Positions 42,175 to 47,026 of a stretch of DNA of 64,000 nucleotides are shown here, in pieces. Positions within the stretch are counted from its first letter, which is position 1. Every line of letters begins with the position of its first letter. Source of the DNA: Devosia sp. 66-14 (lineage in GTDB: Bacteria; Pseudomonadota; Alphaproteobacteria; Rhizobiales; Devosiaceae); assembly GCA_001899085.1 (NCBI GenBank), contig MKVB01000001.1:1330617-1394616 (forward strand), in the 5' to 3' direction. The notes beneath the pieces were generated by a model, which saw only the letters and a list, made by a program, of their open reading frames with translations, made no database searches and was not told the origin of the DNA. The translations under genes were made by a program, and so were the position numbers.

Positions 42175-43185
42175 GTGCCTCGCCTCGCCCCCTCGCCTCT
42201 GCACCCGGCCGCCGATGCGGCGATGATCGTCGGTATCGATGGGGGTGGCAGCAAGACGCTGGTCGCCAGCGCCGACCGCAACGGGCAGGCGATCCGGCTG
42301 CAACGGGGTCGCGGCACCAGCCCGCTCGAAAGCCCGGGCTGGCGCGAGGCGCTGGCCGAACTGGCGCGGCCGTTCGCCAGCGCACCGGGCCTCGCCGGCG
42401 TCGCCGCGGCGCTGCCGGCTTATGGCGAGGTCGATACCGCCTCGGCGGCGCAGCAGCAGGCGATCGGCGAGCTGTTCGGCGCGGTGCCGCAGCGCCTGCT
42501 CAACGATGTCGATGCTGCCCATCTGGGCGCTTTTGCCGGCGGGCCGGGCATCCTGATTCTCGCCGGCACCGGCTCGATGGCCTGGGCGCGCGATGCGGCC
42601 GGTGGCTCGCACCGCACCGGCGGCTGGGACGATGTCATCGGCGACGAGGGCAGCGGCTACTGGATCGGCAGCCGGGTGCTGGGCGCGGTCAGCAAGGCGA
42701 TCGACGGGCGCGCCGCCCCCACCGGCCTGGTCGATGCGGTGTTCGAGCGGCTCGGCCTCGCCTCCGGCGACCAGATGGACCGGCTGCTGGGCTGGGCCTC
42801 GGGGCTCGACGCGCCACGCATGCAGATCGCCACGCTGGCGCCGATCGCCCTGACGCGCGCCGATGCGGGCGACCCGGCGGCGAACGCCATTGTCGATGCG
42901 GCGGCCGATGAGCTTGCCCTCCACATCAGGACCCTCGAACAGCGCCTCGATGCCCCGGCCATGGCATGGAGCTTCGCCGGCGGGCTGTTCGCGAGCCCGG
43001 CGCTGCAGCGCGCCGTCACCGCACGGGTCGGCCGGCCACCCACCCTGCCCCGGCTGCCGCCGGTCGGCGGCGCCCTCCTCGCCGCGGCCCAGCACCTCGG
43101 CTGGTCCACCGACGAGGCCTGGCTCGACACCCTCGCAGCCTCGCTGCGAGCGCTCTCCGAAGAGATCAGCGAGGCAGCGGACTAG
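42175..43185 (+). CDS. BadF/BadG/BcrA/BcrD ATPase family protein (GlcNAc-kinase-like)
   Basis: A 336-residue protein of the actin-like ATPase fold. The phosphate-1 motif is VGIDGGGSKT and the adenosine-type motif GGLFASPALQ; ILAGTGSMAWA is the phosphate-2 region, and GDEGSGYWIG a conserved family motif. Proteins of this type phosphorylate N-acetylglucosamine or similar amino sugars. GTG 42175 has GGAG 11 bp upstream; ATG 42223, just before VGIDGGG, would give a more typical 320-residue protein. Its 3' end overlaps the convergent decarboxylase gene by 20 bp. Confidence 0.85.
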   Translation: MPRLAPSPLHPAADAAMIVGIDGGGSKTLVASADRNGQAIRLQRGRGTSPLESPGWREALAELARPFASAPGLAGVAAALPAYGEVDTASAAQQQAIGELFGAVPQRLLNDVDAAHLGAFAGGPGILILAGTGSMAWARDAAGGSHRTGGWDDVIGDEGSGYWIGSRVLGAVSKAIDGRAAPTGLVDAVFERLGLASGDQMDRLLGWASGLDAPRMQIATLAPIALTRADAGDPAANAIVDAAADELALHIRTLEQRLDAPAMAWSFAGGLFASPALQRAVTARVGRPPTLPRLPPVGGALLAAAQHLGWSTDEAWLDTLAASLRALSEEISEAAD

Positions 43186-44428
43186 CCACCCCATCCTCGA
43201 CCAGCAGCTCCGCGGCTGCCGGGTGGCTCAGGAAACCGCCGGGGCTGGCCGTAGGGCCGTAGGCGCCCGATTGCAGCACTGCGACCAGTTCATCGACGCC
43301 GAGCGGCGGCAGCGTCACGGTTCGACCCAGCGTATCGAGCGGCGTGCAGAGCGGGCCGACGACGCTGACCGGCGGCCCCGCCGGCTCGCCCAGCCGCGTC
43401 GGTGCGATGATCGGGTAGTCGCGCTTGATCACCTGGCCGAGATTGCCCGAAGCGGCGAGGTGGTGGTGCATGCCGCCATCGGTGACGACGAAACTCTGGC
43501 CGCGGGAGCGCTTGCTGGCATTGACCGCCATCACATAGACCCCGGCCGGCCCGGCGAGGAAGCGGCCGGGCTCGACCACCACGCGGGTGCCCGGCGGCAC
43601 GCTGCGGGCCAGCGCCGGAAGGCCTGCCGCGAGCGCTCCGAGATCGAGCGACGCATCGCCCTGGAAATAGGGAATGCCGAGGCCGCCGCCGAGGTCGAGG
43701 GTGGCGAGCGGTTGCCCGACCCGCCCGGCAACTTCGCGCGCCAACTTCAGCCCGTGCTCCCACTGCGCCAGCAGCACGCCGGCATCGAGCACCTGCGTGC
43801 CGGCGAACAGATGCAGCCCGGCGAGGCGGAGATGTGGGCACCCGCCGAGCGCGGCCAGCACCTCGCCCAGGTCCTCTTCATCGAAGCCGAACGGCGAAGG
43901 CTTGCCGCCCATCCGCATCGCACCACCCTGTGCCGCGGCCACCGGGTTGATGCGGAGCGCCACAGCAATGGTCCTGCCGAGGGCCGTGCCGATGGCCTCG
44001 AGCCGCTCCAGTTCTTCGAAACTCTCGACATGGATTTCGCCGATGCCGCCGGCAACCGCCTCCTCCAGCTCGGCCCGGCGCTTGCCGGGGCCGGCAAACA
44101 GGATCTGCTCGGGCGCTGCGCCGGCCGCGCGCGCCCGCCGATATTCGCCGATCGAAGCGATCTCGACCCCCGCCCCCTCGCTGAGGAACAGCCCGATGAC
44201 CGGCACTGCCGGGTTGGCCTTGACCGAATAATGGATCGCGGCGAAGCCATCGAGCGCCTGGCGCAACGCCCGGTAGCTGCGCCGCATCACCCCTGCGTCA
44301 TAGGCAAAGAACGGCGTGCCGAAGCGGCGTCCCAGTTCGCTGACCGGAACGCCGCCAATGACCAGTTCGCCGCCCGCGACCTCGAAATGCTCGGCAACGA
44401 GGGCCGTGGCGAGATCGGCGCCGCTCAT
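43166..44428 (-). CDS. Type III PLP-dependent decarboxylase (Orn/DAP/Arg family 2)
   Basis: A 420-residue fold-type III enzyme. The PLP lysine is K70 in IHYSVKANP; GGGLGIPYFQ binds the phosphate, EPGRFLAGPAG and GPLCTPLDTLG (catalytic Cys) complete the dimer site. It resembles decarboxylases tied to exosortase/exopolysaccharide loci more than lysine-biosynthesis LysA, but no exosortase is visible. The ATG overlaps the ligase stop (ATGA). It may decarboxylate an amino acid that serves as substrate of the carrier-protein pathway. Confidence 0.9.
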   Translation of the reverse strand: MSGADLATALVAEHFEVAGGELVIGGVPVSELGRRFGTPFFAYDAGVMRRSYRALRQALDGFAAIHYSVKANPAVPVIGLFLSEGAGVEIASIGEYRRARAAGAAPEQILFAGPGKRRAELEEAVAGGIGEIHVESFEELERLEAIGTALGRTIAVALRINPVAAAQGGAMRMGGKPSPFGFDEEDLGEVLAALGGCPHLRLAGLHLFAGTQVLDAGVLLAQWEHGLKLAREVAGRVGQPLATLDLGGGLGIPYFQGDASLDLGALAAGLPALARSVPPGTRVVVEPGRFLAGPAGVYVMAVNASKRSRGQSFVVTDGGMHHHLAASGNLGQVIKRDYPIIAPTRLGEPAGPPVSVVGPLCTPLDTLGRTVTLPPLGVDELVAVLQSGAYGPTASPGGFLSHPAAAELLVEDGVASPLPR

Positions 44429-45942: not shown

Positions 45943-46193
45943 GAGGTCCCCCGCTGGTCGACGAAGGCGGCCAGCCGCTCGGGCGTGGCGAGGTTTTCGG
46001 GAGTGAAATCGCCATCCTCGAGCGCGATGCCGAAACGCTCGCCGAGGAACATCATCAGGTCGAGCATGCCGAGCGAATCCACCGCTCCGCCGGCCAGCAG
46101 CTCGGTTTCCGGCTTGAGATTGTTGAGCGCCGGGAAGCGCTGGCGCAGATAGGCTTCGATGATGGCGTAGCTCTTGGTGGTGTCGTCGATCAT
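45939..46193 (-). CDS. Acyl carrier protein
   Basis: An 84-residue stand-alone carrier protein. The phosphopantetheine attachment site is S40 in GGAVDSLGMLDLM. The following helix and acidic helix II are typical; it lacks the sequence of primary-metabolism AcpP. It overlaps both neighbours by 4 bp (ATGA), so carrier, ligase and upstream protein are translated together. This makes it the dedicated carrier of the unit. Confidence 0.93.
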   Translation of the reverse strand: MIDDTTKSYAIIEAYLRQRFPALNNLKPETELLAGGAVDSLGMLDLMMFLGERFGIALEDGDFTPENLATPERLAAFVDQRGTS

Positions 46194-47026
46194 GCTGGCC
46201 CCGGGGTTGCCTGGTGGATGAAGGTGAGTTCGGTGTAGCTGTGGTCGATCGCGTCGGCCGGCAGTTCGCCGCTGGCGAACACCCGGCAGCGCGACGGGGC
46301 GTGCAGCGCGCCCGGCCAGGTATCGGCGCGGTTGGCTTCGATTTCGAGGAACATCCGGCCCTGGCCGACGAGGAGGCGGGCGACGGCGCCGCGATGAAGC
46401 TGCAGCCGGCCCAGATTGGGGCAATAGATGAGCCGCACGCCCGGCACGCCGCGCAGCCGCGTGGGCAGGAAGATCAGCGGGTCCGCCGCACCGCCCTCGC
46501 TCAGCAGCGTCGCGCAGACGAGGCCCATCGCGGCGTGGTCGGCCAGCAGCTGATCGCCCGCCTGACGGTCGAGACTGAGCCGCGCCCGTGATGGCTGGAA
46601 ACTGTCGAGCAGAGTCGGCACGATCATCGAACCTCGAACCCGCCCGGCAAGGCCGAGGCGCTCGTTCAGCGCCTCGACGTCATGCGTCGGGCTGAGATCG
46701 GTCACGAGGTCTGCCGCCGCAACCGCCGCGCGCAGCATCAAGGGAGCAAAGAACCGGGCGCGCTGGTCGACATACCAGCTCGAGAGGTTGAGCTTTCGCC
46801 CGGCCGATGCGGCGCCGCTCGGGCTGTCGAGCGTCAGCAGCACCCCGACATCCTGGCCCTTGTCGACCAGCAGCGTGCCGATCGGGCCGGCGCCCCGCGC
46901 CTCGCGATAGGCGCTGAGGGCCTTGAGCAGCCTGTTCCAGAACCCCGGCGGGCGTTGTGGGAAGCCGCGACACAGCACGGCCTCCGCGCGCCCCAGCGCG
47001 CCTGATGTGATGATTTCGATCTGCAT
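46190..47026 (-). CDS. GNAT-like protein of unknown function
   Basis: A 278-residue protein without signal peptide. Residues 45-130 look like a GNAT acyltransferase core: GTLLVDKGQDVGVLLTLDS, then SSWYVDQRARFFAPLML and ALNERLGL in the order and spacing of strands 4-6. The C-terminal half is not recognised. The usual RxxGxG acetyl-CoA loop is not seen, as in enzymes that take acyl groups from a carrier protein. It is the first gene of the carrier-protein unit. The assignment is tentative. Confidence 0.65.
   Translation of the reverse strand: MQIEIITSGALGRAEAVLCRGFPQRPPGFWNRLLKALSAYREARGAGPIGTLLVDKGQDVGVLLTLDSPSGAASAGRKLNLSSWYVDQRARFFAPLMLRAAVAAADLVTDLSPTHDVEALNERLGLAGRVRGSMIVPTLLDSFQPSRARLSLDRQAGDQLLADHAAMGLVCATLLSEGGAADPLIFLPTRLRGVPGVRLIYCPNLGRLQLHRGAVARLLVGQGRMFLEIEANRADTWPGALHAPSRCRVFASGELPADAIDHSYTELTFIHQATPGPA

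What the first reader, a model, noticed from the sequence alone, without database searches (positions are those of the whole stretch)
43166..47026. Compact carrier-protein pathway: GNAT-like protein, ACP, ligase, PLP decarboxylase
Four genes overlap by ATGA at each junction, so they are made in step. The parts imply this logic: the ligase loads an acid on the ACP, the decarboxylase supplies an amine, and the GNAT-like protein joins them. The product could be an N-acyl amine or a polymer decoration. Related ligases and decarboxylases occur in exosortase loci, but no exosortase or glycosyltransferase is seen. I know of no described system with exactly this set.
Basis: inference. Interest (0 to 1): 0.75.

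Follow-up and report, generated by a model that had tools for sequence, protein, structure and literature searches.

The report
Four-gene carrier-bound beta-alanine pathway
A compact set of four bacterial genes appears to hang an amino acid (probably aspartate) on a small carrier protein, trim it to beta-alanine while it hangs there, and hand it to an acceptor that may be a cell-surface sugar; two of these steps are known from antibiotic factories, but I found no description of this small stand-alone version.

Summary
In detail: four minus-strand genes (tandem-GNAT protein, ACP, AMP-forming ligase, PLP decarboxylase) join by ATGA at all three junctions in a Devosia genome. The order recurs in six genera by record title (24 of the 80 loci kept); the ACP/ligase overlap holds in 24 of 24, and no other gene family travels with them across three or more genus labels. 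[quoted passage not shown] The decarboxylase is nearest to BtrK, which works on a carrier-bound amino acid, and has its C-T motif, not LysA's C-E. So it most likely trims the ACP-bound amino acid (aspartyl- to beta-alanyl-ACP) and makes no separate amine; the GNAT protein then transfers the product. Shinella units sit inside surface-polysaccharide loci, so a glycan acceptor is plausible but unproven. Ligases and decarboxylases of exosortase-A type share both signatures. Acid, acceptor and all activities are inferred. Known module, new variant: self-contained, with its own transferase and no PKS or NRPS seen nearby.

The parts
46190..47026 (-). tandem-GNAT protein (278 aa), proposed aminoacyl-ACP transferase
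   Evidence: AF2 model pLDDT 90.6 (the modelled protein has 6 extra residues before the ATG); Foldseek hits are GNATs, several described as tandem; homologues
45939..46193 (-). stand-alone acyl carrier protein (84 aa), overlaps GNAT gene by ATGA
   Evidence: PF00550 21.0 bits, gathering score 20.8; best NCBIfam AmcB 37.8 bits, cut-off 80
46074..46076 (-). serine codon of the DSL motif, expected phosphopantetheine site
   Evidence: DSL kept in the 11 unit ACPs aligned
44425..45942 (-). VinN-like AMP-forming ligase (505 aa), overlaps ACP gene by ATGA
   Evidence: TIGR03098 579.8 bits, cut-off 592.35; pocket best match VinN 3wv4/3wvn
45340..45342 (-). ligase Asp201 = VinN Asp230 (amino group)
   Evidence: 26 of 26 unit ligases
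45130..45132 (-). ligase Ser271 = VinN Ser299 (alpha-carboxyl)
   Evidence: 26 of 26 unit ligases
45034..45036 (-). ligase Arg303 = VinN Arg331 (alpha-carboxyl)
   Evidence: 26 of 26 unit ligases
43166..44428 (-). BtrK-like PLP decarboxylase (420 aa), overlaps ligase gene by ATGA
   Evidence: TIGR03099 417 bits, cut-off 478.45; best PDB BtrK 7ru7/2j66 274.7 bits vs 173.8 for best DAPDC
43343..43348 (-). decarboxylase Cys361-Thr362 (GPLCTP), BtrK-type motif
   Evidence: C-T in 60 of 60 enzymes examined; own LysA has C-E; BtrK letters seen

Best explanation
A self-contained beta-aminoacyl-ACP pathway. (1) The VinN-like ligase activates an amino dicarboxylic acid, most likely L-aspartate, at its side-chain carboxyl with ATP and loads it on the holo-ACP. 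(2) The BtrK-like decarboxylase removes the alpha-carboxyl while the amino acid hangs on the ACP, giving beta-alanyl-S-ACP. (3) The tandem-GNAT protein takes the group from the ACP and puts it on an amine or hydroxyl acceptor, plausibly an amino sugar or other part of a surface glycan. Shown here: gene order, conservation, nearest relatives, active-site signatures, predicted GNAT fold. Inferred: the acid, the carrier-bound order of events, the transfer step and the acceptor. My estimates: steps 1-2 as carrier-bound chemistry 0.8; aspartate/beta-alanine rather than glutamate/GABA or methylaspartate 0.65; GNAT as the ACP-dependent transferase 0.7; glycan acceptor 0.4.
For: Ligase pocket: best PDB match of residues 185-330 is 3wv4/3wvn, named VinN in a review; Asp201/Ser271/Arg303 align with VinN Asp230/Ser299/Arg331, described for alpha-amino and alpha-carboxyl recognition; all three kept in 26 of 26 unit ligases (window, 24 complete units, L029). 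The VinN-type enzyme AfcQ of Burkholderia loads L-Asp on AfcK, and AfcP decarboxylates it on the carrier, reconstituted in vitro. Decarboxylase: BtrK 100 bits ahead of any DAP decarboxylase; C-T motif in 25 of 25 unit and 35 of 35 other TIGR03099-like enzymes examined, versus C-E in the genome's own LysA and C-D in a third relative; the genome has a separate LysA at 502 bits. Of 30 TIGR03099-like loci (L135-L164; 35 of the 62 genomes matched were fetched, see also against) 25 hold an ACP and 26 a ligase of this group within the fetched 13-20 kb; the best ligase of each keeps Asp201 and Arg303 in 26 of 26, Ser/Thr271 in 25 of 26 (weaker second ligase hits in L159, L161, L162 and L163 were not examined). 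Four-gene co-evolution: distance correlations 0.96-0.98, 0 of 999 permutations as high. Pseudochrobactrum has ligase+ACP+GNAT and no decarboxylase in the 18.8 kb fetched, as expected if the GNAT draws on the ACP. Polysaccharide contexts.
Against: No activity was tested. Next to the Devosia unit no polysaccharide-synthesis gene was found, and by eye none was recognised beside one Agrobacterium (L037) and one Phreatobacter unit (L030) (not annotated by a search). In Rhizobium sp. CC-CFT758 the ACP and ligase frames are broken into pieces, so that copy is probably not working. GNAT homologues also occur without these partners: in 5 of 6 genomes chosen for lacking a decarboxylase match, while 2 of 12 genomes with the ligase have none, so the GNAT is neither exclusive nor indispensable; in two Bradyrhizobium loci the nearby ligase lacks the signature (S/N/F). 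In 5 of the 35 fetched TIGR03099-like loci (L165-L169) the decarboxylase has the C-T motif but no ACP or ligase near, so the motif alone does not prove a carrier-bound substrate. Ligase and decarboxylase fall below the curated cut-offs of their nearest NCBIfam families. Distance correlation is partly expected from shared ancestry of the genomes. The fold matches are of modest TM-score (0.30-0.56 by query, 7-14% identity).
Confidence: 0.62

Rival explanations
1. One reading: the ligase loads an acid on the ACP, the decarboxylase makes a free amine, and the GNAT protein joins them to an N-acyl amine.
For: GNATs commonly acylate amines (general knowledge); the fold is GNAT; several decarboxylases of this fold make free amines (listed).
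Against: Nearest solved relative BtrK acts on an ACP-bound amino acid; C-T motif instead of the C-E and C-D of two relatives in the same genome; ligase pocket reads an amino dicarboxylic acid; TIGR03099-like enzymes sit near ACP and ligase mostly without a GNAT homologue (GNAT found in 2 of 35 loci).
Confidence: 0.12
2. Same carrier chemistry with L-glutamate (GABA-ACP, as in butirosin) or 3-methylaspartate (as in vicenistatin) instead of aspartate.
For: BtrK itself works on glutamyl-ACP; VinN on 3-methylaspartate.
Against: The ligase pocket resembles VinN, which was also solved with L-Asp, and the VinN-type AfcQ uses L-Asp. The genome was not searched for a glutamate mutase.
Confidence: 0.3
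3. Beta-alanyl-ACP is used for a small diffusible product (beta-alanyl amide, dipeptide or oligo-beta-alanine), not for a surface polymer.
For: No glycan-synthesis gene found beside the Devosia unit or recognised by eye beside one Agrobacterium and one Phreatobacter unit; AfcQ/AfcP build oligo-beta-alanine.
Against: Shinella units lie in polysaccharide loci, as does a broken Rhizobium copy; GNAT homologues in polysaccharide-type loci of Methylocystis and Methylobacterium.
Confidence: 0.4
4. The unit supplies beta-alanine for pantothenate and coenzyme A.
For: No PanD match in 19 of 19 Devosia genomes searched.
Against: A complete unit was seen in only 2 of those 19 (a third is cut by its contig end), so most Devosia manage without both; a GNAT and a CoA-derived carrier would be a costly way.
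Confidence: 0.05

Closest known systems
AfcQ/AfcK/AfcP of AFC-BC11 biosynthesis (Burkholderia cepacia complex)
   Same: VinN-type ligase loads L-Asp on a lone carrier protein, PLP decarboxylase makes beta-alanyl-carrier; reconstituted in vitro (PMC12186527, passages read).
   Different: Part of a lipopeptide cluster with fatty acyl-AMP ligase and other enzymes; no tandem-GNAT transferase named in the passages read.
VinN/VinL/VinO of vicenistatin and FlvN of fluvirucin (macrolactam starter units)
   Same: Ligase, stand-alone ACP and PLP decarboxylase acting on the carrier-bound amino acid (vicenistatin; PMC11284099, passages); same three pocket residues as VinN.
   Different: Second adenylation enzyme VinM and acyltransferase VinK follow, feeding a polyketide synthase; none seen in or beside this unit.
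BolO/BolC/BolN of bolagladins
   Same: Proposed aspartyl-ACP decarboxylation by a BtrK-like enzyme with VinN-like ligase (PMC7756342, passages).
   Different: Feeds an NRPS.
BtrI/BtrK of butirosin
   Same: BtrK is the nearest solved relative of the decarboxylase and acts on glutamyl-BtrI (PMC7857480, passages).
   Different: Glutamate; the ligase BtrJ is, as recalled, of another fold; other transferases follow (recalled).
Exosortase-A-associated TIGR03098 ligase and TIGR03099 decarboxylase
   Same: Nearest NCBIfam models; most such loci examined also hold an ACP; share Asp201/Arg303 and the C-T motif.
   Different: Two loci checked lie in XrtA systems with PrsR and hydrolase 2, one also PrsK; the ACP is seldom between GNAT and ligase; the unit scores below both cut-offs and its genome has no exosortase match.
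DltA/DltC D-alanylation of teichoic acids (analogy, recalled)
   Same: Ligase loads an amino acid on a small carrier for decoration of a surface polymer.
   Different: No decarboxylase; transfer by membrane proteins rather than a GNAT.

Membership tests
VinN-type beta-amino-acid ligase | Asp230, Ser299 and Arg331 equivalents | tested here: met
   Asp201/Ser271/Arg303 align; 26 of 26 unit ligases. CmiS6 (5jjp) and HitB (7dq5), printed in the same call, lack the Arg; another AMP-forming ligase of the genome (L012) has I/S/P, the one control of three that aligned there.
VinN-type beta-amino-acid ligase | Bulky residue at Phe231 and short beta13-beta14 loop | tested here: met
   Tyr202 in 26 of 26; no gap against VinN in this loop, two residues shorter than LgrA domain 2. 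By alignment only.
VinN-type beta-amino-acid ligase | Adenylates the side-chain carboxyl of (methyl)aspartate and loads an ACP | not testable with these tools
   needs enzyme assay
BtrK-type aminoacyl-ACP decarboxylase | Closer to BtrK than to DAP decarboxylases | tested here: met
   274.7 vs 173.8 bits among solved structures
BtrK-type aminoacyl-ACP decarboxylase | GPLCT motif in place of C-E / C-D | tested here: met
   60 of 60 enzymes examined vs own LysA and a third relative
BtrK-type aminoacyl-ACP decarboxylase | Activity on ACP-bound substrate | not testable with these tools
   needs protein mass spectrometry
Exosortase A system (TIGR03098/TIGR03099 equivalogs) | Scores above curated cut-offs | tested here: not met
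   579.8 < 592.35 and 417 < 478.45
Exosortase A system (TIGR03098/TIGR03099 equivalogs) | Exosortase in the genome | tested here: not met
   PF09721 0 matches
Diaminopimelate decarboxylase LysA | TIGR01048 cut-off and C-E motif | tested here: not met
   254.8 < 297.9; C-T; separate LysA
GNAT superfamily | GNAT fold | tested here: met
   GNAT structures on top, Foldseek probability 1.00, TM-score by query 0.30-0.56 among the 50 listed; predicted model
GNAT superfamily | Match to a GNAT sequence model; canonical Q/RxxGxG/A loop (recalled) | tested here: not met
   0 Pfam and 0 NCBIfam families; loop reads RxxA
Macrolactam beta-amino starter system | VinM-like second ligase, VinK-like acyltransferase, PKS | tested here: inconclusive
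   none in the unit, the 10 neighbours or the 20 genes; rest of the genome not searched for them

The most novel reading that the evidence does not exclude
A widespread carrier-protein-dependent beta-alanylation system for cell-surface glycans, perhaps adding oligo-beta-alanine since AfcQ can load iteratively: a soluble, GNAT-based counterpart of teichoic-acid D-alanylation. It would exist as a portable four-gene cassette in Hyphomicrobiales and, in related form, explain the unassigned ligase and decarboxylase of exosortase-A polysaccharide loci.
Probability: 0.3. Interest if true: 0.8.

Novelty: new variant of a known kind. Interest (0 to 1): 0.6.

Why it matters
It turns a vague four-gene guess into a testable chemical pathway and suggests a concrete function (beta-aminoacyl-ACP formation) for two families that NCBI carries as hypothetical equivalogs of the exosortase-A system. 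If the acceptor is a glycan, it would be a new way for bacteria to put positive charge or a reactive amine on their surface polymers. It also shows that a module known from antibiotic clusters lives as a small portable unit in Hyphomicrobiales.

Tried and rejected
Lysine biosynthesis for the decarboxylase: rejected, the genome has its own LysA. Exosortase system: no exosortase match. Beta-alanine for CoA: weakened, since PanD was not found in 19 of 19 Devosia genomes but a complete unit was seen in only 2. Conserved neighbours that would name the acceptor: no family shared by three or more genus labels outside the unit, in 21 of the 24 complete loci plus the window. First ACP search failed because an aligned row with gaps was read; redone. 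Control ligases were read on the wrong strand and are discarded; redone, where one of three (L012) aligned through the pocket. A direct VinN alignment was not printed because LgrA filled the listing; obtained with a pocket fragment. PDB sequence search with the GNAT protein gave nothing of worth (best E 1.7). Searches for papers on the exosortase families or on this set gave none on the point (listings seen); the 2006 PEP-CTERM paper has none of the six terms sought. The NLSSW motif was the search pattern, so its invariance in alignment A6 is partly by construction, and one search kept 80 of 180 confirmed loci.
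Full report
WHAT IS THERE. On the minus strand four genes follow one another: a 278-aa protein (46190-47026), a carrier protein (45939-46193), an AMP-forming ligase (44425-45942) and a PLP decarboxylase (43166-44428). All three junctions are ATGA.

IS IT MORE THAN CHANCE. A scan of named bacterial genomes with a profile of the first protein found 182 stretches, confirmed 180 and kept 80. In 24 of these 80 the complete order GNAT-ACP-ligase-decarboxylase follows; one more (L029) is cut by the contig end in the ligase and one (L026) ends inside the first gene. 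By record title the 24 belong to Devosia, Phreatobacter, Agrobacterium, Rhizobium, Shinella and Pseudolabrys, with one unnamed Proteobacteria MAG. In 397 sampled genomes of the order, 22 (6 of 142 genera; the window's own included) carry a unit-type ligase; of 23 such places 16 have the complete unit (the window's among them), 1 is cut, 3 lack an adjacent GNAT and 3 show only ACP and ligase within about 1.5 kb. The 4-base ACP/ligase overlap is kept in 24 of 24 complete units, and pairwise distances of the four proteins (24 loci plus the window) correlate at 0.96-0.98, with 0 of 999 permutations as high (shared ancestry contributes). The other overlaps are rarer: ligase/decarboxylase in 2 of 24, GNAT/ACP ATGA in 1 of 24. 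Outside the unit no gene family is shared by three or more genus labels within the flanks (21 of the 24 loci plus the window). The unit is thus a self-contained cassette of patchy distribution.

LIGASE. Its best NCBIfam model is the exosortase-A ligase TIGR03098 (579.8 bits, cut-off 592.35). Its substrate pocket (residues 185-330) finds VinN as best solved structure (3wv4, 3wvn; the names VinN, CmiS6 for 5jjp and HitB for 7dq5 are from PMC11253843, passages read). Asp201, Ser271 and Arg303 fall on VinN Asp230, Ser299 and Arg331; chain numbers differ from published ones by the same 16 at all three places. [quoted passage not shown] CmiS6 and HitB, printed in the same call, have substrates without a second carboxylate and lack the arginine. 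All three residues are kept in 26 of 26 unit ligases (window, 24 complete units, L029). Another AMP-forming ligase of the same genome has I/S/P (one of three controls aligned there). The loop before the arginine has the length of VinN's.

DECARBOXYLASE. The best solved relative is BtrK, L-glutamyl-[BtrI ACP] decarboxylase, at 274.7 bits against 173.8 for the best diaminopimelate decarboxylase. The conserved Cys is followed by Thr (GPLCTP), as in BtrK, in 25 of 25 unit enzymes and 35 of 35 other TIGR03099-like enzymes examined; the genome's own LysA has C-E and a third relative C-D. As recalled, this residue contacts the far end of the free amino acid in the classical enzymes, so its loss fits a far end occupied by a thioester. 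LysA is present elsewhere in the genome at 502 bits.

GNAT PROTEIN. No sequence model matches. The AlphaFold2 model, from an alignment of 23 sequences, has mean pLDDT 90.6 and matches GNAT structures such as Eis and Eis2, MAB_4324 and the clavulanic-acid pathway protein, the last two described as tandem GNATs (TM-score by query 0.30-0.56). The loop that in common GNATs reads Q/RxxGxG/A (recalled) reads RxxA here; I read this, as inference, as fitting a carrier-bound donor rather than free CoA. Homologues accompany other ACPs: in Pseudochrobactrum a distant ligase and an ACP, with no decarboxylase in 18.8 kb; in Bradyrhizobium only weak ACP matches (12-22 bits) lie in the neighbourhood, and the two ligases that could be aligned there lack the signature.

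HOW IT MOST LIKELY WORKS. The amino dicarboxylic acid, most likely L-Asp, is loaded on the ACP by its side-chain carboxyl, decarboxylated there to beta-alanyl-ACP, and transferred by the GNAT protein. The first two steps have been reconstituted for AfcQ/AfcK/AfcP (PMC12186527, passages), where loading is even iterative. At least one phosphopantetheinyl-transferase-family gene is present in the genome (PF01648).

WHICH ACCEPTOR. In Shinella sp. WSC3-e the unit lies in a plasmid locus with flippase, glycosyltransferases, nucleotide-sugar dehydrogenases, polysaccharide deacetylase and a sugar-transfer-associated ATP-grasp gene; L047 (Shinella lacus) has a deacetylase and a polysaccharide-synthesis protein upstream. 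Rhizobium sp. CC-CFT758 has a similar locus with intact GNAT and decarboxylase frames but ACP and ligase in pieces. GNAT homologues stand in a polysaccharide-type locus in Methylocystis and beside a glycosyltransferase in Methylobacterium. In Devosia itself the scanned neighbours are an iron/B12-type ABC transporter, two-component genes and a BadF/NagK-like kinase, which do not help. A glycan acceptor is plausible, not shown.

EXOSORTASE LINK. One search matched TIGR03099 at E up to 1e-85 in 62 of 398 genomes; I fetched 35 of those places. Of the 30 higher-scoring ones fetched (L135-L164), 25 hold an ACP and 26 a ligase of this group; the best ligase of each keeps Asp201 and Arg303 in 26 of 26. 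Two of these loci, L136 and L138, carry XrtA-system genes (PrsR-type regulator and hydrolase 2 in both, PrsK in L136). L140 has GNAT, ligase, decarboxylase and ACP together near glycosyltransferase-like genes. The five lower-scoring loci (L165-L169) have neither ACP nor ligase. The same carrier chemistry may therefore serve exosortase-A polysaccharide loci. This Devosia has no exosortase match.

AGAINST. No activity was measured. GNAT homologues occur in 5 of 6 genomes chosen because they had no decarboxylase match, and are missing in 2 of 12 genomes with the ligase. In some genomes ligase and decarboxylase lie on different contigs (G239, G365).

VERDICT. A real, conserved unit; a known chemical module (VinN/VinL/VinO, AfcQ/K/P, BtrI/K) in a new, stand-alone setting with its own transferase; acceptor unknown.

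Noticed in passing
window 47152-47478 (-); L019:10171-10491; L020:5313-5753: Small protein of about 106-108 aa with a hydrophobic N-terminus just upstream of the unit; among the loci a homologue was found only in the Devosia ones.
   Followed up: partly
L135-L137, L139, L140: Ligases of several exosortase-type loci have Ala where the unit has Tyr202 (VinN Phe231), which may mean a different, larger amino acid.
   Followed up: no
genomes G000-G018: No aspartate decarboxylase PanD match in 19 of 19 Devosia genomes and a match in only 2 of 61 relatives searched; the source of beta-alanine for CoA is unclear.
   Followed up: no
G239, G365, G742: Genomes of one family in the order have ligase+ACP and decarboxylase on different contigs (G239, G365); G742 has two ligases, one inside a complete unit.
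   Followed up: partly
L212 (Pseudochrobactrum plasmid) 7120-9849: AMP-binding ligase, carrier protein and GNAT homologue without decarboxylase in the fetched stretch; the ligase is only distantly related (148 bits).
   Followed up: partly
L210 (Rhizobium sp. CC-CFT758 plasmid) 12887-14669: ACP frame in two pieces and ligase frame in three pieces between intact GNAT and decarboxylase frames; the unit looks decayed or the record has errors.
   Followed up: partly
window 42175-43185 (+): BadF/NagK-like kinase gene converges on the unit and overlaps the end of the decarboxylase gene by 20 bases.
   Followed up: no
L165-L169: GPLCT-type decarboxylases with no ACP or ligase near; substrate unknown.
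   Followed up: no
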